From IMG/VR virus record IMGVR_UViG_3300037261_000038, positions 1 to 26,557 of that record: 26,557 bases of DNA. One strand, 5' to 3'. Within the stretch, counting starts at the first letter, position 1, and every line of letters begins with the position of its first letter. Below, piece by piece: positions 3,535 through 21,061 of this stretch. The notes beneath the pieces are model-generated. The model worked only from the letters and a program-made list of their open reading frames with translations. It was not told the DNA's origin and searched no databases. Made by a program: the position numbers and the translations under genes. This stretch comes from a virus.

Positions 3535-3740
3535 TCTACACGCGTAGTGAGCCAACGCACACGTTGCTGATCGCGGTCCCGCTGAATATGGACGCTAACC
3601 CCGCGGCCGAGGGTTGGGATACGCAGGCTGCTTTTGTCGAGGCAATCGGGGCAATATTGCCCCTGATCCGCGTTGGAACCCTTGGGCTGCTCTGCGACCA
3701 GATCCAGGTCACGCTGGAAGACGCGGAGCCCACTGTATGA
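3531..3740 (+). CDS. Hypothetical protein preceding portal
   Basis: 69 residues starting at GTG 3531, which overlaps the previous stop, and ending in an ATGA overlap with the portal gene, so it is embedded in a coupled chain. The sequence is soluble-looking with a mixed alpha/beta pattern (THTLLIAVPLNM, then two amphipathic helices around residues 30-55). No motif is recognised. An in-frame ATG at 3495 exists but would overlap the preceding membrane-protein gene by 40 bases. Function unknown. Confidence 0.55.
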   Translation: MIYTRSEPTHTLLIAVPLNMDANPAAEGWDTQAAFVEAIGAILPLIRVGTLGLLCDQIQVTLEDAEPTV

Positions 3741-5290: not shown

Positions 5291-6317
5291 GAGCAGCCGA
5301 GGCATTCTGCCTCAAGATAACCTGTACCGTGCGGTCTATGCGCTTCCCAGCGCGTCAGAGGACGTAGCAAACGAGCGCGCGGTCACACAGAACGACGATG
5401 GAACCACGCTTGACCTTCAGTGGGCGGTGTTCGATCAGTGGACTGAGATCAACTCGGCGTACGAGGGGCATTTCATGGAGCGCATCGCTCCGGGGGCTTT
5501 CGCCAAGACGATCAAAGAGAACCAGTCGAACATGCGCATCCTCTTGCAGCATGGCCGCGACCCGCAGATTGGCAACAAGCCGATTGCGTCCATCACGGAG
5601 GTTGGCGAGAACAACATTGGCGGATATGGCCGCGGTGAACTGTTCCCGGGTCTTGACCCGCTCGTGGTGGACGGCCTCCGCGCCGGTCAGTACGGTTCGT
5701 CGTTCCGGTTCGGCGTGATCCGCGATGACCTGGTGACCAAGCCTGAGCGTTCCGCCTACAACCCGAAGGGGATCCCTGAGCGGACGATCCGCGAGGCTTC
5801 GGTTATGGAGTTCGGCCCCGTTACCTGGGGAGCATATTCACAGGCTACGGCTGGCGTGCGCTCCATTACTGACGAGATCCACTTTGCGAGCCTGACCAGC
5901 ATCCCCGAGGCTCGCTTGCTCGAGTTGGTCGCGTTCGCGCGTGGCAAGGCCGAGCGCTTGGACTCGCTGGACTTCAGTTGCCTTTCCTCGATGGTTCTCG
6001 CGGGCGGACGCTACATCGCCCAACAGGACGAGGATGACCCCGAGTCCAACACAACCACGATGAACCAGGTGCTCGACCTCCTGGGAACTCTCGTGCAGGT
6101 GGAGATCGCCGAGGCTCCCGAGCCCGATGATACGTCCGCTGAATACCTTTATTCTGCACCCGAGTCCGGCGATACAGCCGACGCTGCCCCGGCAGCGGAT
6201 GACTCGCGCCGCACGGAAGTACCCGAAGCACCCGTCGAGGCGCCGGCCGCAAAGGCCACCCCGACGACGGACAGATACCTGTCCAAGCGCCCACGCCCAG
6301 AAGCGTGGCGCATCTAG
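5280..6317 (+). CDS. HK97-family prohead protease with long C-terminal extension
   Basis: 345 residues; ATG 5280 lies 8 bases after AAAGGAGG and overlaps the portal gene by 11 bases. The protease domain (about residues 45-195) shows the U35-type features: FMERIAPGAF, the catalytic His in LLQHGRDP (H91), and GSSFRFGV containing the likely catalytic Ser (S140 or S141), then TIREASVMEFGPVTWGAY. It cleaves scaffold and capsid delta domains during head maturation. Beyond about residue 250 is an acidic, Pro/Ala-rich tail ending in a basic segment (LSKRPRPEAWRI). That extension is longer than the minimal protease and could be a scaffold-like appendage; this is inference. Confidence 0.9.
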   Translation: MKPKSSRGILPQDNLYRAVYALPSASEDVANERAVTQNDDGTTLDLQWAVFDQWTEINSAYEGHFMERIAPGAFAKTIKENQSNMRILLQHGRDPQIGNKPIASITEVGENNIGGYGRGELFPGLDPLVVDGLRAGQYGSSFRFGVIRDDLVTKPERSAYNPKGIPERTIREASVMEFGPVTWGAYSQATAGVRSITDEIHFASLTSIPEARLLELVAFARGKAERLDSLDFSCLSSMVLAGGRYIAQQDEDDPESNTTTMNQVLDLLGTLVQVEIAEAPEPDDTSAEYLYSAPESGDTADAAPAADDSRRTEVPEAPVEAPAAKATPTTDRYLSKRPRPEAWRI

Positions 6318-6332
6318 ACGTACGAGGAATAT

Positions 6333-7802
6333 ATGACGATTGACGAACTGCGAGTTTCAGTCGCAGACATGATTGTACGCCTCCAGGAGATTGACGCGGC
6401 CGCTGAAGGTCGCCACATGTCTCTCGAGGAGCGTACCGAGTGGAACACACTCAACGACAACCGCGAGGACACCATCAAGCTCATTGACGAGCTCGATGCT
6501 CGCGACGAGCGCCTGCGCGGCTTGACGGCTGAGCCGGATGCTTCCGAGACGATCGGTAATGGTTTCAATACCAAGTCTCCCCGCGCGACCAATAGCGGCG
6601 ACATCTACGACCTGACGACCATTCGGCGTGAGAACGCTGAGAGCATGTGCCGTGACCTTCGCGACCGTGCAATGCGTTCGGTCGAGTCGGCGAAGTTCCC
6701 GCCGCTGGTTGGGCGTTCGGAGGCTCAGACCCATATCGAGAAGCTTATCGATCGGTTTGACAATCCCGAGCGCCAGGATGGCGTTGCGGGCGAGATCAGC
6801 CGTCGAATTCTGACGACCGGCTCCCCCACCTACAAGCGCGCGTTTGCGAAGACGATGGCCTCCAAGGCGGTTACCGCCGACGAGCAGCGTGCTCTTGCGC
6901 TCGGTACCGGAGCCACTGGTGGCTTCGAGATCGTGTACACGCTGGATCCCACCATCATCCCGACAAGCAACCTCTCGGTGAACCCTTACCGCGAGTTCTG
7001 CTCCGTCGAGTCGATTGCGGGAACGAACGAGTGGCGTGGCGTCACTTCGGCCGGTGTTACGGCGGCGTATGTGGCTGAGGCCACTGCGGCGACGGACAAC
7101 AGCCCGACGCTCGCTCAGCCGTCCCTGGTAGTCGCTAAGGCGCACTGCTTCATCCCCGCGTCGATCGAACTGACGCAGGACTGGGGCACCATCGAGCAGG
7201 ATCTTTCGACTCTGATCATGGACGCTAAGGACGACCTCGAGGCCACGCAGTTCACGACCGGTACCTATGGTGCCGCGACGAGCCCGGGTGGGCTCATCAC
7301 AGGCGCTACCAACACCGTCAGTACGGCGGGAACGGCAGCCTTTGTGATTGGGGACCTATACAAGCTGTGGGAGTCGCTCCCGCCCCGCTTCCGGGCCCGT
7401 GCATCATGGCTCGGCAACCTGTTCATCTACGACAAGATCCGTCAGTTCGATACCGCTGGTGGTGCCGGACTGTGGCTCCAGAACCTGACAGTGGCTGCTG
7501 GTGCCGCTGGCGGCGTTCCCGCGCCCGGGGTTGTTGCCCCGTCCAGCCTGATGGGCAAGCCCGCCTACGAGTCCACCGTGATGGCTTCCGCCCTCACGTC
7601 GGCTAACAAGGTCATGGCCGTCGGTGACGGCCGGTACTTCAAGATCATCGATCGAATTGGGATGGACATCGAGGTGATTCCTCATCTTTTCGGAGCTGCC
7701 CAGGGGAACTTGCCAACAGGCCAGCGCGGCTTCTACGCATATTGGCGCAACACTGCCAAGGTCCTGGATCCCGCCGGTTTCAGAGTTTTGGTCACAAGTT
7801 GA
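6333..7802 (+). CDS. Major capsid protein, HK97 fold
   Basis: 489 residues, starting at ATG 6333 after GAGGAAT. The first about 65 residues form a charged coiled coil (LRVSVADMIVRLQEIDAA through DELDARDERLRGL), matching the delta scaffolding domain removed by the prohead protease. The mature HK97 fold follows from roughly residue 180: GATGGFEIVYTLDPTIIPT, a central WRGVTSAGVTAAYVAE strand region, the E-loop/P-domain part with SIELTQDWGTIEQDL, then FRARASWLGNLFIYDKIRQ and the closing FYAYWRNTAKVLDPAGFRVL. Its position after portal and protease is canonical. Expected product is the hexamer/pentamer shell subunit. Confidence 0.95.
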   Translation: MTIDELRVSVADMIVRLQEIDAAAEGRHMSLEERTEWNTLNDNREDTIKLIDELDARDERLRGLTAEPDASETIGNGFNTKSPRATNSGDIYDLTTIRRENAESMCRDLRDRAMRSVESAKFPPLVGRSEAQTHIEKLIDRFDNPERQDGVAGEISRRILTTGSPTYKRAFAKTMASKAVTADEQRALALGTGATGGFEIVYTLDPTIIPTSNLSVNPYREFCSVESIAGTNEWRGVTSAGVTAAYVAEATAATDNSPTLAQPSLVVAKAHCFIPASIELTQDWGTIEQDLSTLIMDAKDDLEATQFTTGTYGAATSPGGLITGATNTVSTAGTAAFVIGDLYKLWESLPPRFRARASWLGNLFIYDKIRQFDTAGGAGLWLQNLTVAAGAAGGVPAPGVVAPSSLMGKPAYESTVMASALTSANKVMAVGDGRYFKIIDRIGMDIEVIPHLFGAAQGNLPTGQRGFYAYWRNTAKVLDPAGFRVLVTS

Positions 7803-8583: not shown

Positions 8584-8585
8584 AT

Positions 8586-8657: not shown

Positions 8658-8669
8658 TTCGTAACGTGT

Positions 8670-8735: not shown

Positions 8736-9443
8736 ATGCGCGTATGGGCACTCCTGAGTTGGTACGCCGAACGGCCAGACTGGCTCGCCGACATGGTCGA
8801 ATCCGTAGCGCCGCTAGTGGATGGCGTCATAGCAGTCGACGGGCCATATCCTCTTGCACCACACGACAGCATGACGAGCCACGCGGATCAGTATGTCGCG
8901 TTACGCCACGCCTGTTGGCAGCACAGACTAGAGCTCTACATCCACGCTCCCGGAGCGCTGGCGGAAGTTGACAAGCGCGCCTTCATGTTCAGGGCGGCAC
9001 TGGCGGTTGCTGAGCCGATGGAGGACTGGTTCCTCGTCATGGACGCCGACATGTACATGAGCGGCATATCGTGGCCTGAGCGGGCCCGCTGGTACCTCGA
9101 AGGCACGGAGCACCATGCCGCGGAGATCACCTTCCACAATCTGGACCCTGAGATCGACAGTAATCCGAAGGTGCGGCAGTTCCGGTCCCTGTTCCGCGCG
9201 ATTCCGGGCTTGACGGTTGAAGGGCTGCATTCCATCTACACGGTGCCGGACCTAAACGGGGAACGCCTGATGATGTGGCAGGCGTTGGGCGAGAGAAGGC
9301 CCGTTGAGGCGCTTGACCTTACGAAGCACATTCATCTTTACCACCGGCCGCACGAACGCGAGCAGGAGCGGCAGGCGTTACGTGCTGCCTATTACGACCG
9401 TCGTGCGACGGCAAATATCGAAGCAGCACCCATCTATGACTAG
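8736..9443 (+). CDS. Glycosyltransferase, GT-A type (paralogue of 17923 gene)
   Basis: 235 residues; ATG 8736 follows GGGAG. The N-terminus (MRVWALLSWYAERPDWL, then VIAVDGPY near residues 31-38) matches a GT-A nucleotide-binding half, and DWFLVMDADM places a DxD-type motif at D103-A-D105, where metal and nucleotide sugar bind. The rest contains RSLFRAIPGLTVEG and IYTVPDLNGER. The same order of segments occurs in the protein at 17923-18669, so the two are diverged paralogues. No transmembrane segment; cytosolic. The sugar donor and acceptor cannot be read from the sequence. The location directly after the capsid gene suggests action on virion proteins, which is inference. Confidence 0.8.
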   Translation: MRVWALLSWYAERPDWLADMVESVAPLVDGVIAVDGPYPLAPHDSMTSHADQYVALRHACWQHRLELYIHAPGALAEVDKRAFMFRAALAVAEPMEDWFLVMDADMYMSGISWPERARWYLEGTEHHAAEITFHNLDPEIDSNPKVRQFRSLFRAIPGLTVEGLHSIYTVPDLNGERLMMWQALGERRPVEALDLTKHIHLYHRPHEREQERQALRAAYYDRRATANIEAAPIYD

Positions 9444-9451
9444 GAGCGGGC

Positions 9452-9637
9452 ATGGATCACTTCTGCAAAGAAGCACTATGGCGACTCGGTAGGTCGATCG
9501 AGTCAAGCGGTGAGATTATCGGGACCGTCTCACGCTGGCCCGCCAATGCCGACTTCGCCAAGCAGCAGCACATCAACGGCGCGCTGGCGAACGCCGAGCG
9601 GGTGGTTGTGGCCGCAAAGATTGTTGCCGCGATCTAA
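9452..9637 (+). CDS. Hypothetical protein
   Basis: 61 residues from ATG 9452, with AGGAGCGG ending about 4 bases upstream and only 8 bases after the previous stop. The sequence is largely helical (ALWRLGRSIESSG, then ALANAERVVVAAKIVAAI) with no cysteine pairs or membrane segment. No family is recognised. Good RBS and tight spacing argue that it is translated as part of the operon. Confidence 0.5.
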   Translation: MDHFCKEALWRLGRSIESSGEIIGTVSRWPANADFAKQQHINGALANAERVVVAAKIVAAI

Positions 9638-9701
9638 GCATGACCACGCCCTTACTACCTACCTCGCAGCATCCGAACACTAACTAGGAGCAGGAGCAGA
9701 T

Positions 9702-10061
9702 ATGGCTAGACAGAAAAGCGCCCCGAGCATCTACGTTGCGACGGAATCCGGGTCCGCTGAGGTTGACGGCGAGAACATGACGTTCGTGAAGGGCGTAACT
9801 CGCGTTCGCGCGGGCCATCGTCTACTTGAGCAGCTCCCGGCGTTCTTTGAGCCGGCTGACGAGGACCTGTCGTATGACGTGGAGGATGCGGCTGCTGGTC
9901 CTGATGTGAAGCGTGACGCTGTGGTTGTGGGTACGCCCGCTCCGGTTGCCGCCGTCGCCCCTGCTGCTCCCGTCGCTCCCGTCGAGAAGCTCGCTGCTCC
10001 GGTTGAGGCGGTTGTGCCGGCGTTTGCATCGGGCGGCGTAGTTCCCGCTGACAAGAAGTAG
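9702..10061 (+). CDS. Small head-region protein with Pro/Ala/Val tail
   Basis: 119 residues; ATG 9702 follows AGGAGCAGGAGCAG. Residues 1-65 form a compact part with GVTRVRAGHRLLEQLPAFFEP, a motif shape common in small phage proteins encoded just after the capsid gene (V-R-x-GH-x-L ... P-x-x-F-x-P). Residues 70-119 are low-complexity Ala/Pro/Val repeats (APVAAVAPAAPVAPVEK) ending in KK. The 19800 gene has a similar layout with a shorter Pro-rich tail. Possible head or connector accessory protein; function not established. Confidence 0.6.
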   Translation: MARQKSAPSIYVATESGSAEVDGENMTFVKGVTRVRAGHRLLEQLPAFFEPADEDLSYDVEDAAAGPDVKRDAVVVGTPAPVAAVAPAAPVAPVEKLAAPVEAVVPAFASGGVVPADKK

Positions 10062-10067
10062 GCACAT

Positions 10068-10718
10068 ATGACCGTAGACCCGCGAGATCTATGCCAAGTA
10101 GCGGACTGCAAAGCCCTTATGCAAAAGAGCGGGGCTAACGCTGGCGCTCAGGACGCGTTGATTCAACAGCTCATCACACGGGCGTCCATCAAGATCATGC
10201 GGGACTACGGTCGCGAGTTCGTTCCCGGTGGCACCGAAAGCCTTACGGCCATTGCAGCGCCGCGGACGTTCGAGTACCAGCGGGCTGACCAGTTGTACAC
10301 AGGCGAAGTGTTCGTGGACCTACACCCGTACGACCTTCAACTGTCGCCGGTACCTACGGTGGCGGTGGATACGGACCTGGCGAGCTCGATTACCCTGACG
10401 ACAGACGATTATCGCCTGTGGCCGCGGCCGGCTTCGCAGGGCGTGTACATGGCTATCAGGATCAGCTCGCTGAGCGTTCGTGGCCCGTGGTCGCGGTTCA
10501 ATAGTCGACAGTTGACGATCACGGGCAATTGGGGTTTCCCGACCGTGCCGTTTGAGGTTGAGCAGGCGTGCGCGGAGACGGTGATTCATTGGTTGACAGC
10601 GTACCCGGCAGCTAACCGGCCGCAGCAGCCGGACTCTATTATGCCTCCGATTCAGCCTCGGTCGTATCCGATGGCGGCGATTGATCTGCTGTGCACGTTC
10701 AAGAGGATGATTGGGTGA
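10068..10718 (+). CDS. Head-tail connector (adaptor) protein
   Basis: 216 residues. An N-terminal helix-rich part (DALIQQLITRASIKIMRDYGREF) leads into beta-rich sequence with LTTDDYRLWPRPASQGVYMAIRI, QLTITGNWGFPTVPFEVEQAC and a final helix. This is the usual pattern of gp6-like/phage adaptor connectors: short helices, then an inserted beta domain with a G-x-W-G-F/Y-x-x-V-P segment. The connector bridges portal and tail. Position after capsid and accessory genes fits. The stop overlaps the next GTG. Confidence 0.75.
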   Translation: MTVDPRDLCQVADCKALMQKSGANAGAQDALIQQLITRASIKIMRDYGREFVPGGTESLTAIAAPRTFEYQRADQLYTGEVFVDLHPYDLQLSPVPTVAVDTDLASSITLTTDDYRLWPRPASQGVYMAIRISSLSVRGPWSRFNSRQLTITGNWGFPTVPFEVEQACAETVIHWLTAYPAANRPQQPDSIMPPIQPRSYPMAAIDLLCTFKRMIG

Positions 10719-10900
10719 GCTCCAAGTGTTGGTGTGACGATAAGTCGCAGGAGCCATGTTCCTGGCCCTGTGATCTTATGCGGGACCACACGCGGCTGCG
10801 AGAGGCTGCACAAGAAGCGTCCGAGGCCGAGTTCACGAGCGAGCGGCTAGCGGCCATGGATCGCCTGCGCGCCGTTTTGGCGCTGGAGGAGTCTCCTTGA
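10715..10900 (+). CDS. Small cysteine-rich protein
   Basis: 61 residues from GTG 10715 (GTGA overlap with the connector stop); an upstream in-frame ATG at 10691 would overlap further. The first 20 residues have four Cys (C-x-C ... C-x3-C: CWCDDKSQEPCSWPC), a possible zinc knuckle, and the remainder is a single long amphipathic helix (HTRLREAAQEASEAEF...). Not a known family. Its stop overlaps the TTG of the broken gene that follows. Confidence 0.5.
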   Translation: MSSKCWCDDKSQEPCSWPCDLMRDHTRLREAAQEASEAEFTSERLAAMDRLRAVLALEESP

Positions 10901-10959
10901 CCACGGCTTACTACTGGCGCGGCGTCCCTAACTTCGGAGAACGACTGGTGGTCACATGA
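10897..10959 (+). pseudogene. Remnant of a pyruvyltransferase gene 5' end
   Basis: A 20-codon ORF (TTG 10897 to TGA 10957-10959) encodes TTAYYWRGVPNFGE, almost the same as the start of the complete gene at 11138 (ITAYYWRGVPNFGD), then diverges and stops. Within 39 aligned bases (10902-10940 against 11149-11187) four differences are visible, all at codon third positions and synonymous. So this is a decayed or replaced copy rather than a fresh duplication. The remnant overlaps both neighbours (TTGA at its start, ATGA at its end), so it may still act as a translational relay. Confidence 0.7.
10902..10940 (+). repeat. Partial direct repeat, upstream copy
   Basis: 39 bases matching 11149-11187 with four synonymous third-position differences. 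It encodes the HGLLLAR-less start of the pyruvyltransferase-like protein (TAYYWRGVPNFG). Distance between copies is 247 bases. Confidence 0.8.
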
Positions 10960-11141
10960 CGCCGACAAGGGACTGGGGATGGAAGGTTACGGTCCACGCC
11001 TACGGTACGGGACCGATCCCGGGTAGCGAGGCCATGATCGACGCTGCTAACCAGGTCGCTGAACAGATTGGGGCCGATGACTTCGTGGGCGTTGAGTTCA
11101 AGCGCGTCAAGAAGGCTCCGCACGATCAGGTGGCAACGTGA
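10956..11141 (+). CDS. Hypothetical protein inside the duplicated segment
   Basis: 61 residues; ATG 10956 overlaps the stop of the remnant (ATGA), and its own stop overlaps the GTG of the next gene (GTGA). It contains a beta-helix-beta pattern (WKVTVHAYGTG, SEAMIDAANQVAEQIG, FVGVEFKRVKK). No family is recognised. It lies between the broken and the intact copy of the pyruvyltransferase-like gene, so it may have arrived in the same rearrangement. Confidence 0.5.
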   Translation: MTPTRDWGWKVTVHAYGTGPIPGSEAMIDAANQVAEQIGADDFVGVEFKRVKKAPHDQVAT

Positions 11142-11842
11142 GTCCGATCACGGCTTACTACTGGCGTGGCGTCCCCAACTTTGGGGACCTGCTCTCCCCG
11201 CTCCTGCTCAAACACTTCTGCGGTATCGACGCGGAGTGGGCACAGGCAGAGGAAGCCGACATCGCTTGTACGGGTTCCATCGTGGAGCACCTAGGTCAAT
11301 TTCAGGGAACGGTTATCGGCTCGGGCAGGATGTACGGGGATGCGAAGCGGGCACTACGGAACGCCACCGTGCTCGCCCTGCGCGGCCCTCTGACCGCCAA
11401 AGGCATCTCGACGGACTGCGCCCTAGGCGATCCGGGTTTGCTCGCAGACGAGCTCGTGATGGTCGAGACACGGAAGCACGCTTTGGGCATCGTTCCGCAC
11501 TGGTCAGACCGGACGCTTGCGACGGACGCAAGGTTCATGAGATATCACCCGTTGGTCATCGACCCTCGAGCTGATCCGCTCGAAGTGGTGCGCCAGATTG
11601 GCTCGTGCCGGAAGATCGTCACGTCGAGCCTGCACGGCATGATCGTGGCCGACGCCTTCGGCATCCCCAGACGGTTTGAGTACACCCCGCAGTTTGATCG
11701 AGAGGGCGGCATGTTCAAATTCCTCGATCATTCAGCCGCGGTGAATACACCGCTTGAAGTGGGTGTGACGATGGTGGCTAACCGTTTTGCGGTGCATGAT
11801 CGCAAGTCTGAGTTGGCTGACGCCTTCCGCGAGCTGTGTTAG
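11138..11842 (+). CDS. Polysaccharide pyruvyl transferase-like protein
   Basis: 234 residues. The N-terminal YYWRGVPNFGDLLSPLLLK carries the N-x-GD motif typical of the family, and the C-terminal half has IVTSSLHGMIVADAFGIP, the family's SLHG signature. In bacteria these enzymes transfer pyruvate from phosphoenolpyruvate to sugars as a ketal, or resemble GT-B transferases. The length is below that of larger bacterial members. No membrane segment. GTG 11138 overlaps the previous stop; no strong Shine-Dalgarno is visible, so coupling is likely. Substrate unknown. Its company suggests a modification of a glycan built by the neighbouring glycosyltransferases. Confidence 0.8.
   Translation: MSPITAYYWRGVPNFGDLLSPLLLKHFCGIDAEWAQAEEADIACTGSIVEHLGQFQGTVIGSGRMYGDAKRALRNATVLALRGPLTAKGISTDCALGDPGLLADELVMVETRKHALGIVPHWSDRTLATDARFMRYHPLVIDPRADPLEVVRQIGSCRKIVTSSLHGMIVADAFGIPRRFEYTPQFDREGGMFKFLDHSAAVNTPLEVGVTMVANRFAVHDRKSELADAFRELC
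11149..11187 (+). repeat. Partial direct repeat, downstream copy
   Basis: The copy inside the intact pyruvyltransferase-like gene, matching 10902-10940 in 35 of 39 bases. Homologous recombination between the two copies would delete the small gene at 10956-11141. Confidence 0.8.
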
Positions 11843-12771
11843 CGCTCGGGCTCGGGCTAGCGCTTCTCTCCATGTCCTCCTTTTATCTACTGCACCGGCG
11901 ACGTGCTCGCCGGCAGAGGAATGCCACCCCCTTGATTTCAATCCTCGTACCCTTCCAGGCAGACCGCGGCTCTGACCGTAAACGAATCTGGAAGTGGACG
12001 AAGCGGTACTGGAAGCACGCACTACCGGGATGCGAGATTGTCGTCGGGCAGGACGGTGGACGGCCGTTCTCCAAGACTTCTGCGGTGAATAACGCCGCGA
12101 GCCGTGCCAGAGGAGATATCTATGTGATCTTGGACGCCGACTGTCTCATGGCTGCCGACGTGATTGAGGATTGCGCGCGCCGGATTCGTGAGGCGGCTGA
12201 GCGCGGGCAGCATCTGTGGTTTGTGCCGTATCGGCGCATGTTTCGTCTGTCGCCTGCGGTGACGGACGGGATCCTTGAGTCGAACCCGAGACGGTGGCCG
12301 TTCTGGGCATTCGAGCTGCCGCAGGATCCGGGCGATGTTGTGAACGCTGACCCGCCTTCGTACGGCCATCACTTCGGCGCGCTCGTTCAGGTGATGCCGG
12401 CGGAAGCCTTCTGGCATGTCGGAGGTATGGACGGAAGGTTCAGGGCATGGGGTGGCGAGGACGTGTCCTTCCTGTTCGCGCTGGACACGCTGTGGGGTCC
12501 GCATCGCTCCATGGACAACGAGGCGCTGCACTTGTGGCACGAGACGATTGGTGCTACGTGGCAGGATCGCATGTGGGAGGGGCAGGATCGTCCGATGCCG
12601 ATGCACGCGTTGGCGTCTCGGTATTCGGCGGCTCGTGGGGATCGTGCGCGGATGCGTGCGCTGGTGAAGGAGCATTGCGGACGGGCGCGCACGAAATCGT
12701 GGCGTGAGGTTCGTGAGCAGCGGCGTCTGATGGATCTGGGGAACGAGGGCTTCGATGGCGCTAACTCCTGA
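11836..12771 (+). CDS. Membrane-anchored family 2-like glycosyltransferase
   Basis: 311 residues; GTG 11836 overlaps the previous stop by seven bases. Residues 1-20 are hydrophobic (ALGLGLALLSMSSFYLL) and followed by RRRARRQR, a single N-terminal membrane anchor with positive charges after it. The GT-A domain starts at LISILVPFQADRG (33-45), with VGQDGG and the DxD in YVILDADC (D100-A-D102). GGMDGRFRAWGGEDVSFLF in the second half is the GG-x-D/E ... GGED motif common to galactosyl/N-acetylgalactosaminyl transferases (GT2/GT7-like). An internal Met13 start would remove half the anchor. Donor and acceptor unknown. Probably acts at the membrane. Confidence 0.82.
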   Translation: MLALGLGLALLSMSSFYLLHRRRARRQRNATPLISILVPFQADRGSDRKRIWKWTKRYWKHALPGCEIVVGQDGGRPFSKTSAVNNAASRARGDIYVILDADCLMAADVIEDCARRIREAAERGQHLWFVPYRRMFRLSPAVTDGILESNPRRWPFWAFELPQDPGDVVNADPPSYGHHFGALVQVMPAEAFWHVGGMDGRFRAWGGEDVSFLFALDTLWGPHRSMDNEALHLWHETIGATWQDRMWEGQDRPMPMHALASRYSAARGDRARMRALVKEHCGRARTKSWREVREQRRLMDLGNEGFDGANS

Positions 12772-12955
12772 ACAGAACGCCGAGTGTGGTTGCGCGTTTG
12801 TATTACAGAAGATGACCAAGAGGTTGCGGCCGGCGGTGAATCGAGCATACGACGCGCCGGACCACGAGTCGCGCTTGAAGTACGTCTCCGAGGCGATTCT
12901 TGACGCAAGGGCAGTCTTGGCTGTTCTCGAAAGCCTAGTGCCTGATGGCAGCTAG
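12755..12955 (+). CDS. Hypothetical helical protein
   Basis: 66 residues from ATG 12755, overlapping the glycosyltransferase end by 17 bases and followed by an 11-base overlap with the next gene. Predicted all-helical (LQKMTKRLRPAVNRAY, SRLKYVSEAILDARAVLAVLESL). Two cysteines (CGC) near the N-terminus. No family recognised. The overlaps imply translation as part of the chain. Confidence 0.5.
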   Translation: MALTPEQNAECGCAFVLQKMTKRLRPAVNRAYDAPDHESRLKYVSEAILDARAVLAVLESLVPDGS

Positions 12956-13178
12956 CTCGATCAAGCTTCCATTGCGTGCCATCTCGTCGAAGGATGCGAC
13001 CCTGGTTGGGCTTGCCGAGTCGCCGCACCTGACGGTATGTCTGTCTGAGGATGAGCTGAGGCAAGCGCGCGCCGTTGAGGAAGCTGCGTTGCGCCCTGGC
13101 GAAGTGATCTGGTTCGACACCATCGTGGGCAAGGTTTACGTAGCCCCGAGCATGTGGTGGGTTTCGCATGGCTGCTAG
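12945..13178 (+). CDS. Hypothetical protein
   Basis: 77 residues from ATG 12945; it overlaps both neighbours by 11 bases. The sequence includes LTVCLSEDELRQARAVEEAALRPGEVIWF and ends with a beta hairpin-like stretch (KVYVAPSMWWV). Not recognised. Location directly before the tail-terminator-like gene suggests a head-completion or connector accessory, but no motif supports it. Confidence 0.5.
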   Translation: MAASSIKLPLRAISSKDATLVGLAESPHLTVCLSEDELRQARAVEEAALRPGEVIWFDTIVGKVYVAPSMWWVSHGC

Positions 13179-13617
13179 TACCGCACCATCCGTCAAAGCA
13201 GCGCTCCTAACCCTCCTCAGAGCCGACGTAAGCCTATCCGGCGTACAGATCGAGTATGCGGACCCCGGCGCCGAAATTCAGCAGGAGAGCGTCTTCTACG
13301 GCCGTACCATCGAGACGGAAAAACCCGACTCTCTTGGGCAGCGGAAGCAGCGCGAGTCATACGACCTTGAGATCTACGTCTACACGGCGCAGGACGGCAA
13401 CGATCCGCAGACGTGTGAGGAACGCGGCTGGGCTCTTGTGGCTCGGCTCGAGACTGTCGTGCGGGCGAACAACGGGAACAACGGGGCGCTATCCGCGGCA
13501 TTGACGAACGCCGCGGGCTGGGTTGTGATGGGCAGCGTTGAGATGACGCCGTTCACGCATAGCGGCCAGCGGGTCTGTGAAGCGCTGTGCCGGGTCCATG
13601 TTGAGGCCGTGAAGTGA
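13168..13617 (+). CDS. Tail terminator-like (tail completion) protein
   Basis: 149 residues. Pattern: an N-terminal helix (SVKAALLTLLRADVSLSGVQIEYADPG), beta strands (ESYDLEIYVYTAQ), a central helix (CEERGWALVARLETVVRAN) and closing strands (GWVVMGSVEMTPF...CRVHVEAVK). This is the usual order in phage tail-terminator proteins, which cap the tail tube and join it to the head. Size and slot (after the connector, before the tail tube) agree. Assignment rests on fold-like pattern and position rather than a diagnostic residue. Confidence 0.62.
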   Translation: MAASTAPSVKAALLTLLRADVSLSGVQIEYADPGAEIQQESVFYGRTIETEKPDSLGQRKQRESYDLEIYVYTAQDGNDPQTCEERGWALVARLETVVRANNGNNGALSAALTNAAGWVVMGSVEMTPFTHSGQRVCEALCRVHVEAVK

Positions 13618-13781
13618 TGTCAGACACGCGCATCTGGCGGCTCGACAACGGCTACTGGGGCGTGAGCCTGACCCTGCCGGGATTCGCTCCGAAGTTGCGT
13701 ACCGACTTTGAGAGTAAACAGGACGCAGAGAGTTGGGTGTTGGACATGGTTGAGATGAGCAAGGAGCTAGACCGATGTTGA
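13617..13781 (+). CDS. Small hypothetical protein
   Basis: 54 residues, ATG 13617 sharing its first base with the previous TGA and ending in an overlap with the next ATG. The sequence (IWRLDNGYWGVSLTLPGFAP, then FESKQDAESWVLDMVEM) looks like a two- or three-strand sheet plus one helix. No named family. The frame is well formed, with GAAGTG upstream being only a weak ribosome-binding site, so coupling to the preceding gene is the likely mode of expression. Confidence 0.5.
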   Translation: MSDTRIWRLDNGYWGVSLTLPGFAPKLRTDFESKQDAESWVLDMVEMSKELDRC

Positions 13782-14131
13782 CACCCGCCGAGCAGGACAT
13801 CACCGCGTACTCGACTGGGATATTTGATCCCGTCTTCACGCTCTACGCGGATAGCGCTCGCACCGCGCCGTTTGACCTGACGGGCTACACGGTAGAGGTT
13901 GATATCGCCACACCCACGCCCCTTGTCCTGGCGGTCGGTAGCGGTCTCACAATCCCCACGCCGACGAACGGAGTGGTCAACGTGAAGCTCACCCCCACGC
14001 AGACGGCTGCTGTCCCGCACCCCGATCCGCAGGGAACGCAGGCGCACTATTTCATGAAGCTGACGTTGATTGCGGATACGACGAATGTGACCTTTCCGCT
14101 TCACGGCACGATCTCGTTTGTGAGTCCCTGA
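13775..14131 (+). CDS. Beta-sandwich fibre or baseplate-associated protein
   Basis: 118 residues, overlapping both neighbours. The sequence reads as an Ig-like/BppU-N-type sandwich: FDPVFTLYADSARTAPFDLTGYTVEVDIATP, followed by NGVVNVKLTPTQTAAVP and YFMKLTLIADTTNVTFPLHGTISF. Short proteins of this pattern are commonly encoded just before phage fibre genes and serve as an attachment domain. Here it precedes the collagen-like and LamG proteins, which fits. The exact partner is not known. Confidence 0.6.
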   Translation: MLTPAEQDITAYSTGIFDPVFTLYADSARTAPFDLTGYTVEVDIATPTPLVLAVGSGLTIPTPTNGVVNVKLTPTQTAAVPHPDPQGTQAHYFMKLTLIADTTNVTFPLHGTISFVSP

Positions 14132-14583
14132 TGACCGATGTTGTCGCCGTTACGGTAAGCCTGAACCCTCCCGTTGAGGTTGAACTTCTAGCTACCGGTC
14201 CCGAAGGTCCCGCTGGTCCCGCTGGAGGAGCCGGCCTCATCGGACCTACGGGCATCCTCGCGACAATCCGTGGAATTTGGGCGTCTGGGACCACCTACAC
14301 AGCGGGACCACCGCCGGACGCGGTGCTCGGGTCAGACGGCCATTGGTATGTCTCTCTAGTGAGCGGGAACGTTGGGCACGATCCCGTCCCTGATGCTGGC
14401 GTGCATTGGGCGGACCAACTGCCGGCTTCGGCGTCGAAGGGTATTCAGTCGCTTGTCTACTCAAGTGGCTCATACCCGGCAAGGCCGGCGGGTCTTCCGG
14501 CGGGCCGCGTACAGTATCAGGGACCGTCCACCGCTACGCCTAGTGATGCACTGTCCGGCGATCTCTGGCTAAAGACGAGCTGA
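14131..14583 (+). CDS. Collagen-like fibre protein
   Basis: 150 residues. After a short N-terminal beta domain, residues 23-42 are a Gly-x-Y run (GPEGPAGPAGGAGLIGPTG) that could form a short trimeric collagen helix, followed by SDGHWYVSLVSGN, a carbohydrate-binding-like or fibre-tip segment, and a C-terminal DALSGDLWLKTS motif resembling the ends of phage fibre modules. The stop lies two bases before the next ATG. A virion-surface fibre subunit is the best call. Confidence 0.65.
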   Translation: MTDVVAVTVSLNPPVEVELLATGPEGPAGPAGGAGLIGPTGILATIRGIWASGTTYTAGPPPDAVLGSDGHWYVSLVSGNVGHDPVPDAGVHWADQLPASASKGIQSLVYSSGSYPARPAGLPAGRVQYQGPSTATPSDALSGDLWLKTS

Positions 14584-14584
14584 T

Positions 14585-17419
14585 ATGGCGTTCAATCTCG
14601 CGACGTTCTCCGGTACGCCGTCCTATGTCGCCGGGAGCGCGAAGTTCGGATCGTTTGGGTTGGCAACCGGCAGCGTTCTCGAGAACCAGACCGTTGTCAA
14701 CTTCCTTTCTTCGTCCCCGACGACAGGCACCATTGAAGCTTGGGCGCGCGTTCCTAACGGGACTGTGACGACCAGCATTATCGCCGGCCTCAATGGCGCG
14801 GGCGGTTACTGGATCGGACTGAACGCAACAGGCGCGGCGCGGTTCTCCAACGGCAACGGTACCAACCTGTTTGGAACGCCGATCAACGATGGCAACTGGC
14901 ATCACATCGTCGGGCTGTGGAACGCCGGGATAGCGATCCTCTACGTTGATGGCGTGTTCTGTGCCGCCGCGACAGTCTCGTTCACGGCAATGAACCCGAT
15001 CATCACGAATCAGTTCGGCGTCGGCGGCTGGGCGATCACAGGCCAGACCGCGTTCAACTGGCTCGGTGACATTGACGAGGTCCGGATCAGTAGCACGGTC
15101 CGCTATACCGGCTTGAACTACGTTGTGCCAACCGCAGCCTTCGCCGACGACGGCAACACCGTCGCGCTCTATCACCTTGAGAACAGCCCGAACGATTCTG
15201 CGGCTGCTGCTGCGACCTATCCGGCTACGACGGTTGAGCCGGTCGTCTCGGGTACCTACGCCACGGGTAACACCCTCACGACGACTAACGGCACTTGGAC
15301 CAACACTCCGACCGGCTACACGTATCAATGGCTGCGTAACGGGGTAGCGATCAGCGGCCAGACGGCTAGCACGTACACGGTCGTCCAGTCCGACATCGGC
15401 ACGTCGGTTACCTGCCAGGTCACCGCGACCAACGCGGCAGGGAGCACGGCTGCGGTCAGCAACGCTCTGAGCGGCCCTCCCGGGTCCCCATACCCGTTGG
15501 TCACCTACTACGGCACGCCGACCTATGGCGCGGGGAAGTTCGGGTCCGGTGGCCTGTCGGGCGGCGCGATCAGCAACCTTTGGGCGCCGATTCTCTTGGG
15601 TGGTACCGGTACGGTCGAGTGTTGGGCGACGGTTCCGAATGGCACGACCGGCGCGAACTATGTTGCGGTCGGCGAGGGGCAGTCCCCCGGCTATTTCATG
15701 GGGATGGGCGCCAGGGGTGGCCTAGCGATTCTGAGCTACGGTGCGGTCCCGGTATCCAATCTCTACGGCCCCGCGATCAACGACGGCAACTACCACCACT
15801 TGGCGATGGTCGTTGCTGGTGGTGTCGTGTTCTTCTATGTCGACGGGGTCCTCGCGAGCGCCGGTAAGACAGCCCTCGCCGCTCCGGGGCAGCCGGTGAA
15901 CGCTCACCCGTGGGGCGTCGCCGGCTATCCGGCCGCCGGGAGCGCGTTCAACTGGCCCGGCACTGTGGATGAGGTCCGCGTTAGCAACATCGTCCGCTAC
16001 GCAGGCTCGGCGTTCACCGTCCCCAGCGCATCGTTCACGGACGATGCGAACACGGTGGCGCTGTATCACCTGGAAGCGGACGGCACCGACTCCCACACCA
16101 CGAAGACCAGTCCTGCGCTCACCGTCGCGCCGGTCGCCTCGGGGACGGTCGCCTCGGGAAATACGCTCTCGGTCACGAACGGGACGTGGACGCTTTCCCC
16201 GACGTTCGCATACCAATGGTATCGGGCTGGCGTGATTATCAGCGGAGCAACCAGCGCGACCTATAGCGCTGTCTCAGCGGACGTGGGCCCTGCTATTACC
16301 TGCCAGGTCACCGCGACCAATGGCGGTGGGTCGACGGGCGCGACGAGCAACGCGATCAGTTCGGGCATCCTCCCGAACGATCCGAATCTGGTCTACAGCC
16401 CCTACAACTGGGATGTCACCAGCGTCCGGGCGAAGTCGATCAACCCTGGCGCGTACTTTCGGGCGCAGATCACTGGGGGCCTCAACTCGCTGACGCTGAA
16501 GTTCAACATCTCAGACGATGCTGGCACCCTCCCGCAAATTGAATACAAGCTGGACGACGGGCCGTGGACGACAGCGACCGTCGCAGCTACCGTTGCCGTC
16601 TCTGTCCCTGCGACGAACGTGTGGCAGACGCACTCGTTGACGGTGATCTTCAAGGCGATGAGCGAGCTTCAGAACCGTTGGAGCCCGACCGCTACCGACG
16701 TGCAGCTCACTGGGATCACCACGAACCCCGCGATCTGCACCACCGTTGCGCAGTCAGCGAAGGCGCTGAACATCTTGCAGTACGGCGACTCGATCACCGA
16801 AGGCATCTTCGCGCTGACCACTACCGACGTGTCGGGCTACAGCAGCCGTCAGGCGGCCTCGTACCAGATTGCTGACACGCTCGGCGCGGAGGTTGGGATC
16901 GTCGGGTTCGGTGGCACTGGAGTCCTCGTCTCAGGCGTTGAAGGTGTCCCGGCGTGGCCGACCACTTACAACGTCCTATGGAGTGGCGGCCCGTCCCGGT
17001 CGTTCACAAGCCCCGTCCCGGATGTGATCGTGGTCAACCACGGCACGAACGACTCGCTGCAATCCCAGTCTTCGAGCGCGTTCACCGCCACGTACATCAC
17101 TGTTCTCAACGCGCTGTTGGCTGCGACGCCACAGAGCACGGTTATTCTGCTGCTCCGACCCTACGGCGGTTATTTCGCCTCTGCGGTTCAGGCGGCAGCC
17201 GCCGGGTGCAGCACCCCAAGCCGCGCTTTCTACGTCGACACGACCGGCTGGTGGAATCAGGCCGACAGCGCCGATGGTCTGCACCCGTATGGGTACGCCA
17301 GCATCGGACAGCTTGCCCCCAACCTCGCAGCCGCAATCAGAAGCTCGTTGGCGGCGCGCGGTCCGCTGTTGTCGTACAACGGCAGCTCGTGGGTATCGGC
17401 TAGCCCATACAAGCTCTGA
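14585..17419 (+). CDS. Modular surface fibre with LamG, Ig-like and SGNH esterase domains
   Basis: 944 residues. Two tandem modules are visible: each has a LamG/concanavalin-like domain (about 1-215 and 305-505; INDGNWHHIVGLWN and INDGNYHHLAMVV; NWLGDIDEVRIS and NWPGTVDEVRVS), followed by an Ig-like domain with the YQWLRNGVAISG / YQWYRAGVIISG and CQVTATN motifs. A jelly-roll-like part follows (about 600-725), then an SGNH hydrolase: GDSITEG (S736), GFGGTG, NHGTND (N822) and DGLHPYG (D897, H900). The last two parts resemble carbohydrate esterase family 2. Likely binds and deacylates surface glycans. It sits before the tail tube gene, not after the tape measure gene. Confidence 0.82.
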   Translation: MAFNLATFSGTPSYVAGSAKFGSFGLATGSVLENQTVVNFLSSSPTTGTIEAWARVPNGTVTTSIIAGLNGAGGYWIGLNATGAARFSNGNGTNLFGTPINDGNWHHIVGLWNAGIAILYVDGVFCAAATVSFTAMNPIITNQFGVGGWAITGQTAFNWLGDIDEVRISSTVRYTGLNYVVPTAAFADDGNTVALYHLENSPNDSAAAAATYPATTVEPVVSGTYATGNTLTTTNGTWTNTPTGYTYQWLRNGVAISGQTASTYTVVQSDIGTSVTCQVTATNAAGSTAAVSNALSGPPGSPYPLVTYYGTPTYGAGKFGSGGLSGGAISNLWAPILLGGTGTVECWATVPNGTTGANYVAVGEGQSPGYFMGMGARGGLAILSYGAVPVSNLYGPAINDGNYHHLAMVVAGGVVFFYVDGVLASAGKTALAAPGQPVNAHPWGVAGYPAAGSAFNWPGTVDEVRVSNIVRYAGSAFTVPSASFTDDANTVALYHLEADGTDSHTTKTSPALTVAPVASGTVASGNTLSVTNGTWTLSPTFAYQWYRAGVIISGATSATYSAVSADVGPAITCQVTATNGGGSTGATSNAISSGILPNDPNLVYSPYNWDVTSVRAKSINPGAYFRAQITGGLNSLTLKFNISDDAGTLPQIEYKLDDGPWTTATVAATVAVSVPATNVWQTHSLTVIFKAMSELQNRWSPTATDVQLTGITTNPAICTTVAQSAKALNILQYGDSITEGIFALTTTDVSGYSSRQAASYQIADTLGAEVGIVGFGGTGVLVSGVEGVPAWPTTYNVLWSGGPSRSFTSPVPDVIVVNHGTNDSLQSQSSSAFTATYITVLNALLAATPQSTVILLLRPYGGYFASAVQAAAAGCSTPSRAFYVDTTGWWNQADSADGLHPYGYASIGQLAPNLAAAIRSSLAARGPLLSYNGSSWVSASPYKL

Positions 17420-17428
17420 GGAGGGCCC

Positions 17429-17926
17429 ATGGTTACCAACACTTGCGGCGGCGGCATTGACCAGACCGCCGTGATAGGGCACGCTCCGGAAAGTAGGGAG
17501 TGGGCTCCCGGAGACCCCTCATTCGCCCCTGAGATTGACAAGACAGCGCGCATAGAGGCGTACGTCACGATCGACGGCGGCCTCTGGGCGGCTACGAAGA
17601 TCGGTGCGCGTAGCTGGGCGATGAAGGGCTGCCACGTCGGACACGATGCCCAGATCGGGGATGACGTGGAGCTCGCGCCGCATTGCTCGGTAGGCGGCCA
17701 CGTCGTCATAGAAGACGGCGTGAGAGTCGGCCAGGGAGCGCTGTTCCGGCCGTTCGTCAACGTCGGCAAGGGCGCTCGGGTCGGCATGGGCGCGGTGGTG
17801 GTCTGCGATATCCCCGCGGGTGAGACGTGGTGTGGAAATCCTGCGAGGCAGTTGAAGCCGCGTGATGTGTCTCCGAGCTCGGTGGATTGCCGCCAGTTTG
17901 GGTGGATGCCCGACTACGAAGGATGA
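17429..17926 (+). CDS. Left-handed beta-helix acyltransferase-like protein
   Basis: 165 residues; ATG 17429 follows GAGGAGGG. The middle (about residues 40-130) consists of hexapeptide repeats ([LIV]-G-x-x-x-x; e.g. IGARSWAMKGCHVGHDAQIGDDVELAPHCSVG split across repeats, and VIEDGVRVGQGALF, VNVGKGARVGMGAVV). A His in CHVGHDA is placed like the catalytic His of hexapeptide acyltransferases. The ending VVCDIPAGETWCGNPARQLK is the standard cap of sugar O-acetyl/N-acyltransferases (GNPAR). The family transfers acetyl or related groups to sugars. Directly followed, with overlap, by a glycosyltransferase gene. Confidence 0.85.
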   Translation: MVTNTCGGGIDQTAVIGHAPESREWAPGDPSFAPEIDKTARIEAYVTIDGGLWAATKIGARSWAMKGCHVGHDAQIGDDVELAPHCSVGGHVVIEDGVRVGQGALFRPFVNVGKGARVGMGAVVVCDIPAGETWCGNPARQLKPRDVSPSSVDCRQFGWMPDYEG

Positions 17927-18669
17927 ACGTCTACGCGCTTTTGAGCTATTACGACGAGCGGGTGGAGCACCTAGAACGTTGCGTCAGGTCGCTCAAGGGT
18001 TTCGCGGACACGCTCATAGCGGTTGACGGAGCCTACAAGACCTTTAGCGGCGATAGCCCAGACAGCAGTATCGCTGAGCGCTTCGCTGTAGTCGACGCCG
18101 GCCGCGCCGCTGGACTCAAGCGCTGCGTCTACAACGTCAGGGAGCGTTGGGATAGCGAGGTGCAGAAGCGCGCCACCATGTTCGAGTTCGCCAGACAGTG
18201 CGGGGCGACGCCCGACGATTGGTTTCTGATTATTGACGCGGACATGGCGCTCGCGGAGTTCACGGCCGATGCACGGGACAAGCTGGCAGCGTCGGACTTG
18301 GACGTTGCGGAGGTTCGATTCCAGGACATGCAGATTAACGGGGTGGCGTCCAGCACGATGACGTTCCGCTCAATGTTCCGGGCGCTGCCGGGTTTGACGG
18401 TGGAGCGGACCCATTACCTGTACACGGTCCCCTGCGCCAGTTGCGGAGGCAGCGACAGGTACTGCATCGCTTGCAACGGCACTCGGCGGCGGTTCCTGTG
18501 GCATGAGCCGAATGGCCAGCTATCCAGAGAGCCAATCCTATACCTGTTCGATGACGTGACGCTGCACCATTTCAGCTCGCAGCGGGATCCGGAACGACGG
18601 ATGCGGGCGATGGACTATTACAAGGATCGGGACGCTTGGACGTTAGAGAGCGCGGGGGACTGGCGATGA
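17923..18669 (+). CDS. Glycosyltransferase with CxxCxG zinc insertion
   Basis: 248 residues from ATG 17923, overlapping the previous stop (ATGA). Shares the architecture of the 8736 protein: MNVYALLSYYDERVEHLE, LIAVDGAY, the DxD motif WFLIIDADM (D105-A-D107), FRSMFRALPGLTVER, YLYTVP. Unlike its paralogue it has CASCGG...CIACNG (C171, C174, C181, C184) inserted between YTVP and RRRFLWH, a DnaJ-like pair of C-x2-C-x-G motifs that should bind one zinc. The closing HHFSSQRDPERRMRAMDYYKDRDAW parallels the paralogue's RPHEREQERQALRAAYYDRRAT. Cytosolic; donor unknown. Confidence 0.8.
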   Translation: MNVYALLSYYDERVEHLERCVRSLKGFADTLIAVDGAYKTFSGDSPDSSIAERFAVVDAGRAAGLKRCVYNVRERWDSEVQKRATMFEFARQCGATPDDWFLIIDADMALAEFTADARDKLAASDLDVAEVRFQDMQINGVASSTMTFRSMFRALPGLTVERTHYLYTVPCASCGGSDRYCIACNGTRRRFLWHEPNGQLSREPILYLFDDVTLHHFSSQRDPERRMRAMDYYKDRDAWTLESAGDWR

Positions 18670-19799: not shown

Positions 19800-20069
19800 A
19801 TGCAGTTGATTTATTCTGGCGCCCACCCTGAGGTTGTTGTCGATGAACTCGACTCCGATCAGGTGATTGTTCGCGGCGAGGCCGTGGACGTTCCCGATCC
19901 CCTCGCGGTGCGTCTACTCGAGCAGGACACATGGGCACGAGCAGTGGCTGTGAAGCCCCCTGTCACGCCCCCAGCGCCGTCACAGGTCACGCTGCCGCCG
20001 CTGCCGGTCCCAGTCAACACCTCGACGGCCGACAACGCCGCTGACACCGCGACGAAGGGGAGTAACTGA
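19800..20069 (+). CDS. Small protein preceding tail tube
   Basis: 89 residues; ATG 19800 follows AGGAGAAAG. An N-terminal beta-rich domain (MQLIYSGAHPEVVVDELDS... VIVRGEAVDVPDPLAVRLLEQDTW) is followed by a Pro/Ala/Thr-rich tail. The beginning resembles small decoration-type phage proteins with V-P-x-x-x-A-x-x-LL-x-Q segments. Its stop overlaps the tail tube ATG. Layout is reminiscent of the 9702 protein. Function unknown; a structural accessory is plausible. Confidence 0.58.
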   Translation: MQLIYSGAHPEVVVDELDSDQVIVRGEAVDVPDPLAVRLLEQDTWARAVAVKPPVTPPAPSQVTLPPLPVPVNTSTADNAADTATKGSN

Positions 20070-21061
20070 TGGGACAAGCGGGAGGACTAGCATCACAGTT
20101 CGGGATGGTGGATGAGGCAACTTTCGGCACGCCGCCGACCATGAGCCGATTCTTGGAGTTCAACTCCGAGACGGTGCAGCTTACGAAAGAACGCATCAAC
20201 TCGTCCGGCCTCCGCGCCGGCCGAAAGGTGCTCAAGACCTCGCAGTGGGTTGTCGGCAAGTCGAACGTCTCAGGCACCGTGGACATGGAGTTCCAGCAGC
20301 AGGGGATGGGGCTCTGGCTGAAACACATGATGGGCGCCATTGCCACTACGCAGCCGAACGTCGGATCAAATCCGACCGTGTACGAGCACAAGGCGACGGT
20401 CGGTCAGCTCGACGGCAAGTCGTACGCCTTCCAGATCGGTATCGCGGGTGCCGATGGTGTGCAGCGCGCCCGGACGTACGCGGGTGGCAAGGTCGCTAAG
20501 TGGGACCTGTCCGTCGCGGTTGACGGGCTCCTGATGTTGCAGATCACGCCGGACGCTATCTCGGAGTCCACGGCGGTTGCTCTGGCTACCGCGTCGTATG
20601 CGACGAACTCGTTTCCGCTGGTGTGGACGGGCGGCACGATCACGCTGCCCGGTGGCGCTGTGGGAAATATCAGTAAATTCGACCTGAACGGGGATAACTC
20701 GCAGGCGCTGGCTCGCTACTTCATGGGTGCCACGCCTGGCACGAAGAAGGAGCAGCTCGAGGAGGGCCTACGCCCGTACGCCGGCTCGGTCGATATCGAG
20801 TTTGCGGACCTGTCGGCGTACACCCTGTACACCAGCGGGACGGTTGGGGCGCTGACGGCGTTCTTTGAGGGCCCGGTCATTTCGGGCTCCTACAACTACG
20901 CGCTGGAAATCACGCTTCCGGCTGTGCGGTTTGACGGTCAGACGCCGAACGTTCCGGGGCCGAGCCTGATCACGTCGAGCATGCCGTTCATCTGTCTGGA
21001 CGATAGTTCGTCGGACGGTCCGGTGGTACTGAAGTACCGTACGGTTGACGCGACCCCCTAG
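20069..21061 (+). CDS. Major tail (tail tube) protein
   Basis: 330 residues; ATG 20069 shares its A with the preceding TGA. N-terminal FGMVDEATFGTPPTMSRFLEF and the following KERINSSGLRAGRKVLKTSQ are typical of phage tail tube proteins of the TIGR02XX-like large-tail class, as is GTVDMEFQQQGMGLWLKHMMGA. The rest is beta-rich with repeated domain-like segments (FDLNGDNSQALARYFM, ITLPAVRFDGQTPNVPGP). Its position just before the tail chaperones and tape measure gene is decisive. It polymerises into the tube of a flexible tail. Confidence 0.85.
   Translation: MGQAGGLASQFGMVDEATFGTPPTMSRFLEFNSETVQLTKERINSSGLRAGRKVLKTSQWVVGKSNVSGTVDMEFQQQGMGLWLKHMMGAIATTQPNVGSNPTVYEHKATVGQLDGKSYAFQIGIAGADGVQRARTYAGGKVAKWDLSVAVDGLLMLQITPDAISESTAVALATASYATNSFPLVWTGGTITLPGGAVGNISKFDLNGDNSQALARYFMGATPGTKKEQLEEGLRPYAGSVDIEFADLSAYTLYTSGTVGALTAFFEGPVISGSYNYALEITLPAVRFDGQTPNVPGPSLITSSMPFICLDDSSSDGPVVLKYRTVDATP

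What the first reader, a model, noticed from the sequence alone, without database searches (positions are those of the whole stretch)
8736..18669. Glycan-decoration cassette spread through the structural operon
Five glycan-active genes are interleaved with connector, terminator and fibre genes: two paralogous GT-A glycosyltransferases (8736, 17923), a membrane-anchored GT2-like enzyme (11836), a pyruvyl-transferase-like protein (11138) and a beta-helix acyltransferase (17429). An SGNH/CE2-like esterase fibre (14585) lies among them. Building, pyruvylating and acylating a sugar chain needs just these classes of enzyme. The simplest reading is decoration of virion proteins, or of the host surface to exclude other phages. 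Phage glycosyltransferases near capsid genes have been linked to virion glycosylation, but pyruvylation of a phage particle would be new to me.
Basis: partly seen in the sequence, partly recalled or inferred. Interest (0 to 1): 0.78.

Follow-up and report, generated by a model that had tools for sequence, protein, structure and literature searches.

The report
Sugar-enzyme genes inside phage structural operon
A tailed-phage fragment from a metagenome carries five intact sugar-building or sugar-capping enzyme genes among the genes for its own particle; two of the enzyme types nearly always live there in related phages, so the phage probably coats its particle proteins with sugars, but the five genes come from separate units and are not one conserved cassette.

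Summary
They are not one cassette but at least two mobile units lodged in the late operon. Unit 1: a GT-A family (phrog_7009; genes 8736 and 17923), often accompanied by a hexapeptide acyltransferase (17429). In 77 of 80 relatives it lies beside morphogenesis genes, in varying slots; its predicted fold is closest to peptide S-glycosyltransferases (ThuS, SunS). Unit 2: a translationally coupled pyruvyltransferase-GT2 pair (11138/11836), co-inherited across about 40 phages (Mantel r 0.82) but usually outside the structural genes. The GT2 is a remote relative of Che8 gp109, from a phage reported to glycosylate its virion. Units 1 and 2 co-occur only in this window (0 of 44 and 0 of 47 other records). 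The closest comparable relative keeps only the acyltransferase-GT pair. Best reading: virion protein glycosylation with acyl and pyruvyl capping. Virion glycosylation is known in mycobacteriophages; I found no description of a pyruvyltransferase in a structural operon. The acceptor is not shown; host-surface modification is not excluded, least of all for unit 2.

The parts
8736..9443 (+). GT-A glycosyltransferase, phrog_7009 family, copy 1, in the MCP-connector slot
   Evidence: phrog_7009 4.7e-28; 36% to Baka gp20, which lies directly before the head-tail connector; DxD invariant
11138..11842 (+). polysaccharide pyruvyltransferase-like protein (PF04230)
   Evidence: PF04230 3e-10, 40 of 40 relatives; NFGD, RGP, GDP, SLHG motifs invariant or nearly so; 50% to Tunturi_5 gp300; model m440333a13cce pLDDT 96.3
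11836..12771 (+). GT2 / galactosyltransferase-like enzyme with probable N-terminal membrane anchor, translationally coupled to the pyruvyltransferase
   Evidence: PF00535 6e-6, phrog_1721 8.5e-19; 42% to Tunturi_5 gp301; remote homologue of Che8 gp109; GTG start overlaps upstream stop
17429..17926 (+). left-handed beta-helix (hexapeptide) sugar acyltransferase
   Evidence: Hexapep 8e-16, NeuD/PglB/VioB subfamily 1.6e-25, below that model's cut-off; 50% to the syntenic gene in L005
17923..18669 (+). GT-A glycosyltransferase, phrog_7009 family, copy 2, 4-bp overlap with the acyltransferase
   Evidence: phrog_7009 2.7e-24; 39% to the syntenic L005 gene; model m4253955fb704 nearest ThuS Z 16.2 and SunS Z 14.8
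14585..17419 (+). fibre-like protein: two LamG-like domains, Ig-like repeats, C-terminal SGNH/GDSL hydrolase; probable host-glycan binding and esterase part, not part of the decoration set
   Evidence: Laminin_G_3 1.1e-24, Lipase_GDSL_2 1.1e-10; phrog_7918 3.8e-23
1618..3192 (+). terminase large subunit (context)
   Evidence: phrog_9 1.4e-47
3740..5290 (+). portal (context)
   Evidence: phrog_12 1.3e-31
5280..6317 (+). head maturation protease (context)
   Evidence: phrog_80 8.9e-21
6333..7802 (+). HK97-type major capsid protein; candidate glycan acceptor
   Evidence: TIGR01554 1.1e-39
10068..10718 (+). head-tail adaptor (context)
   Evidence: phrog_442 1.2e-8
13168..13617 (+). tail-terminator-like protein (context)
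   Evidence: phrog_22863; 39% to L005 7110-7544 at the syntenic position; function inferred from position only
20069..21061 (+). tail tube / major tail protein; candidate glycan acceptor
   Evidence: phrog_290 1.8e-35, a tail family named minor tail protein; 55% to L005 9033-10028; tail-tube role inferred from position and size

Best explanation
The window holds two independently acquired, still intact sugar-modification units in the late operon, and together they most likely glycosylate the phage's own virion proteins (inferred). Step 1 (inferred): one or both phrog_7009 GT-A enzymes transfer a first sugar from a nucleotide-sugar to a side chain on capsid or tail protein. Step 2 (inferred): the sugar is acylated, before or after transfer, by the beta-helix acyltransferase that overlaps GT copy 2. 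Step 3 (inferred): the membrane-anchored GT2 adds a hexose, probably galactose-like, and its coupled partner caps it with a pyruvyl ketal from phosphoenolpyruvate, giving an anionic end group. Shown here: gene identities, catalytic motifs, gene overlap, residence of the GT-A family in morphogenesis modules, and co-inheritance of the pyruvyltransferase-GT2 pair.
For: GT-A family: 77 of 80 loci carry structural genes nearby and 60 of 80 are flanked by them on both sides, in many different slots. In records over 40 kb, 10 of 11 non-redundant lineages have it inside the TerL-to-tail span, seen as 13-35% of the record. The acyltransferase lies within about 0.7 kb of such a GT, in the same module, in 10 of 17 loci of the A3 scan, and beside a different GT-like ORF in L169 and L183. 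Fold of GT copy 2: best VIA-align Z are ThuS 16.2 and SunS 14.8, peptide S-glycosyltransferases; the only sequence-profile hit in PDB is GmaR, a flagellin O-GlcNAc transferase by general knowledge (E 0.0011). Cluster J phages (Baka, Ariel) carry such a GT, further GTs, a kinase and a methyltransferase between MCP and connector; Baka gp16 is 70% identical to Che8 gp109, and the window GT2 is a remote homologue of both. Che8, Corndog and Myrna virions are reported glycosylated by phage GTs on capsid and tail tube (Freeman 2023, as cited in PMC12363180, PMC11256854, PMC12619734). The pyruvyltransferase-GT2 pair is adjacent in about 53 of 74 loci, usually overlapping by 4 bp, with co-inheritance r 0.82, 0 of 2000 permutations. 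At least ten loci have it beside head or packaging genes: L139 between MCP and connector, L113 after TerL, L152 before TerL, L112 and L150 upstream of TerL, and six next to a T4-type head protease.
Against: No acceptor is shown. Location in a late operon is also expected of late-expressed genes acting elsewhere. The pyruvyltransferase-GT2 pair is mostly not in structural modules, and its share beside them (about 10 of 43) is about what random placement would give. Che8 gp110, the GT named as essential for Che8 capsid glycosylation, shows no significant relation to the GT-A family. The window GT copies are on long branches, so function may have drifted.
Confidence: 0.58

Rival explanations
1. 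The enzymes remodel the infected host's surface polysaccharide late in infection, to block superinfection or stop progeny binding debris; the SGNH fibre reads or trims the same polymer.
For: Pyruvyltransferases and hexapeptide acyltransferases are classic cell-surface polysaccharide enzymes (general knowledge); the GT2 has a plausible membrane anchor; the fibre has an esterase domain; most pyruvyltransferase-GT2 pairs lie outside structural modules.
Against: No flippase, GtrA/GtrB or polyprenyl-phosphate GT was noticed among the window genes examined (not searched for systematically; the record is a fragment); the GT-A family stays in morphogenesis modules across many phages; the pyruvyltransferase clade is not found at phage-like score in 396 actinobacterial genomes (best 160 bits against 318).
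Confidence: 0.2
2. The two units have different targets: the GT-A plus acyltransferase unit glycosylates virion proteins, while the pyruvyltransferase-GT2 pair is an inserted moron that modifies the host envelope or another substrate.
For: No co-occurrence in other records (with positive controls); different genomic habitats of the two units.
Against: In L139 the pair sits between MCP and connector with one further GT-like gene and in six loci next to head protease genes; the GT2 is a remote homologue of Che8 gp109, in a virion-glycosylating phage.
Confidence: 0.17
3. The glycosyltransferases hypermodify phage DNA.
For: Phage GTs do this in other systems (as cited in PMC12619734).
Against: No base hydroxymethylase or similar gene was noticed in the window, which is a fragment; a Tet_JBP search of 22 GT-A records was empty but lacked a working positive control, so it is inconclusive.
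Confidence: 0.05

Closest known systems
Cluster J (Omegavirus) mycobacteriophage GT clusters, e.g. Baka gp11-gp20
   Same: Same gene family (gp20, 36% to copy 1) directly before the connector; several GTs and modifying enzymes between MCP and connector
   Different: No pyruvyltransferase and no hexapeptide acyltransferase; other GT families and a kinase and methyltransferase instead
Che8 gp108-gp110 glycosyltransferase genes (virion glycosylation reported for Che8)
   Same: gp109 is a remote homologue of the window GT2 (24%, hhalign probability 100%)
   Different: Located at the right end of the genome, no pyruvyltransferase; gp110 shows no detectable relation to the window GT-A genes
Tunturiibacter jumbo phage Tunturi_5 gp300-gp301
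   Same: Same ordered pair, 50% and 42% identical
   Different: Not beside structural genes; both genes are annotated there as galactosyl transferases (PMC11924767)
Pontimonas phage phiPsal1
   Same: GT, methyltransferase and GT2 between MCP and neck gene
   Different: Different GT families, no pyruvyltransferase or acyltransferase annotated there
Cellular polysaccharide pyruvyltransferases (PF04230; Pvg1p, CsaB, ExoV, GumL, WcaK by general knowledge)
   Same: Pfam family and fold; signature motifs kept
   Different: Short (234 aa) virus clade, coupled to a GT2, not in a polysaccharide locus

Membership tests
Polysaccharide pyruvyltransferase (PF04230) | profile match above the gathering score | tested here: met
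   40.9 bits against 25.3; 40 of 40 relatives match
Polysaccharide pyruvyltransferase (PF04230) | GT-B-like fold resembling a solved pyruvyltransferase | tested here: met
   Pvg1p first in Foldseek (E 3.7e-4, TM 0.44) and Z 10.2, rmsd 4.6 over 199; other GT-B proteins score equally, so the fold does not single out the activity
Polysaccharide pyruvyltransferase (PF04230) | pyruvyl transfer from PEP to a sugar | not testable with these tools
   needs enzyme assay
GT-A glycosyltransferase (phrog_7009) | GT-A fold and invariant DxD | tested here: met
   D105 and D107 invariant in 46 sequences; model and fold matches
Peptide/protein glycosyltransferase (SunS/ThuS type) | transfer of sugar to a polypeptide side chain | not testable with these tools
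   only fold similarity, Z 14.8-16.2; teichoic-acid GT TarS at Z 14.3 is close behind
Hexapeptide (LbH) sugar acyltransferase | hexapeptide repeats above the gathering score | tested here: met
   57.4 bits against 27
NeuD/PglB/VioB sugar acetyltransferase subfamily | score above the NCBIfam cut-off | tested here: not met
   89.9 bits against 160.8: related, not filed as a member
Virion glycosylation system | GT genes resident in the morphogenesis module (typical of cluster J, not required: Che8's are elsewhere) | tested here: met
   for the GT-A family
Virion glycosylation system | glycan on virion proteins | not testable with these tools
   needs mass spectrometry
Single conserved five-gene cassette | co-occurrence of the genes in relatives | tested here: not met
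   0 of 44 and 0 of 47 records (positive controls); relative G001 has two of the five. Many records are fragments

The most novel reading that the evidence does not exclude
Phage virions carry a pyruvyl-ketal-capped, acylated glycan, an acidic sialic-acid-like shield on capsid or tail, installed by a mobile pyruvyltransferase-GT2 pair working with a roaming GT-A plus acyltransferase unit.
Probability: 0.28. Interest if true: 0.75.

Novelty: new variant of a known kind. Interest (0 to 1): 0.55.

Why it matters
Virion glycosylation has been demonstrated in only a few mycobacteriophages that I could find. If the reading is right, it is a widespread, modular trait: a small GT family kept inside morphogenesis modules, with interchangeable capping units. 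Pyruvyl capping would give phage particles a negative, sialic-acid-like surface, which bears on particle stability and adsorption. The pyruvyltransferase-GT2 pair, found here in about 40 distinct phages and annotated in its one isolate (Tunturi_5) as two galactosyltransferases, deserves a proper name and an assay.

Tried and rejected
Single-sequence scans of viral contigs with GT 17923 and the pyruvyltransferase found nothing; alignment queries worked. Relation of the GT-A family to Che8 gp110 was tested by hhalign and rejected. A tree of the GT-A family did not settle whether the two window copies are recent duplicates, because both are on long branches (the L005 copy was left out of that tree by my redundancy filter). 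A Tet_JBP search as a test of DNA hypermodification was empty in the controls too, so it is inconclusive. A TerL search of 396 actinobacterial genomes for a prophage host gave only one 37% partial match, so the host is not assigned. The Freeman 2023 paper is not held; it is used only as cited by others. Corndog NC_004685 is not in the collection. Papers combining phage, polysaccharide pyruvyl transferase and auxiliary metabolic: none found in the held library.

Full report
Observation. The window is a 26,557-base virus record with all main genes on the + strand. Late genes run in the usual order: TerL, portal, protease, HK97-type capsid protein, adaptor, terminator-like gene, tail protein. The five reported sugar genes and the fibre are intact at the stated places.

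GT-A genes at 8736 and 17923. Both belong to phrog_7009 and are 33% identical. A 46-member alignment keeps D105 and D107 invariant. The predicted structure (pLDDT 93.8) is a GT-A fold closest to the peptide S-glycosyltransferases ThuS (Z 16.2) and SunS (Z 14.8), with the teichoic acid GT TarS at 14.3. The only PDB sequence-profile hit is GmaR (E 0.0011). This leans towards a protein-glycosylating enzyme but does not prove it.

Where the family lives. A scan of viral contigs kept 80 of 158 relatives. 77 of the 80 have structural genes in reach and 60 are flanked by them on both sides; slots include capsid-connector, TerL-portal, portal-protease and terminator-tail. In records over 40 kb, 10 of 11 non-redundant lineages have it inside the TerL-to-tail span, which covers 13-35% of the record as seen. 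The visible span is limited by the 10 kb flanks; with a generous 40% my own arithmetic gives about 7e-4 by chance. Named hosts are Streptomyces and Mycolicibacterium and Mycobacterium phages. The host of the window is not known.

Acyltransferase at 17429. It is a hexapeptide protein near, but below the cut-off of, the NeuD/PglB/VioB subfamily. Of 17 loci in its own scan, 10 have the GT-A gene within about 0.7 kb in the morphogenesis module; two more have another GT-like ORF beside it, and some contigs end there. In the relative L005 (G001, TerL 64%) the acyltransferase-GT pair sits in the same terminator-tail slot; in L171 it sits between capsid and connector. L018 also carries two GT-A copies. 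So this is a unit that changes slot but stays in the structural module.

Pyruvyltransferase-GT2 pair at 11138 and 11836. Both families are secure at the profile level. The pair is adjacent in about 53 of 74 loci (57 by the script's loose rule, four of which have the reverse order), most often with a 4-bp overlap. Distances of the two partners correlate at r 0.82 with 0 of 2000 permutations as high, so they travel together. Most pairs lie outside structural modules; at least ten are beside head or packaging genes, no more than random placement might give. The clade looks viral: 396 actinobacterial genomes gave at most 160 bits against 318 for the window.

One cassette or several. Records with the GT-A family or the acyltransferase have no pyruvyltransferase of this clade (0 of 44) and pyruvyltransferase records have no GT-A gene (0 of 47); the same searches ring in the positive controls. 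Many records are fragments, so absence is not proven for each phage. The five-gene set is so far seen only in this window.

Function. Cluster J phages have a comparable set of GTs and modifiers between capsid and connector, including this GT-A family. One of them, Baka gp16, is 70% identical to Che8 gp109, and the window GT2 is a remote homologue of both. Che8 and others are reported to glycosylate capsid and tail tube proteins with phage GTs (Freeman 2023, not held; cited in PMC12363180, PMC11256854 and PMC12619734). By position and homology the most likely role is virion glycosylation with capping steps. The acceptor, the sugar and the order of steps are inferred. Host-surface modification remains the main rival, mostly for the pyruvyltransferase-GT2 pair.

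Fibre. The 944-residue protein at 14585 has LamG-like, Ig-like and SGNH domains with catalytic-type motifs in the translation. It is more simply a receptor-binding or host-glycan esterase part than a member of the decoration set.

Verdict. Real, intact and interesting; a new combination within a known kind of phage trait rather than a new kind. The cassette interpretation is corrected to two modular units.

Noticed in passing
7950-8474 and 19244-19789: Two HNH-type endonuclease genes inserted in the late operon, the first next to a tRNA-Met(CAT) gene at 8585-8658.
   Followed up: partly
9702-10061: 119-residue protein with an Ala/Pro/Val-rich C-terminal tail between GT copy 1 and the adaptor; no PHROG match; could be a decoration or connector protein.
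   Followed up: no
L057 5139-5930 and L183 11064-12029: ORFs that look like Gfo/Idh-type sugar oxidoreductases beside acyltransferase-GT units; judged by eye, no PHROG match.
   Followed up: partly
L007 1023-1658: DNA methyltransferase-like ORF (DPPY motif) between TerL and portal in a close relative (TerL 75%).
   Followed up: no
L008 11980-13718: Tunturi_5 gp300 is annotated galactosyl transferase but belongs to the pyruvyltransferase clade.
   Followed up: yes
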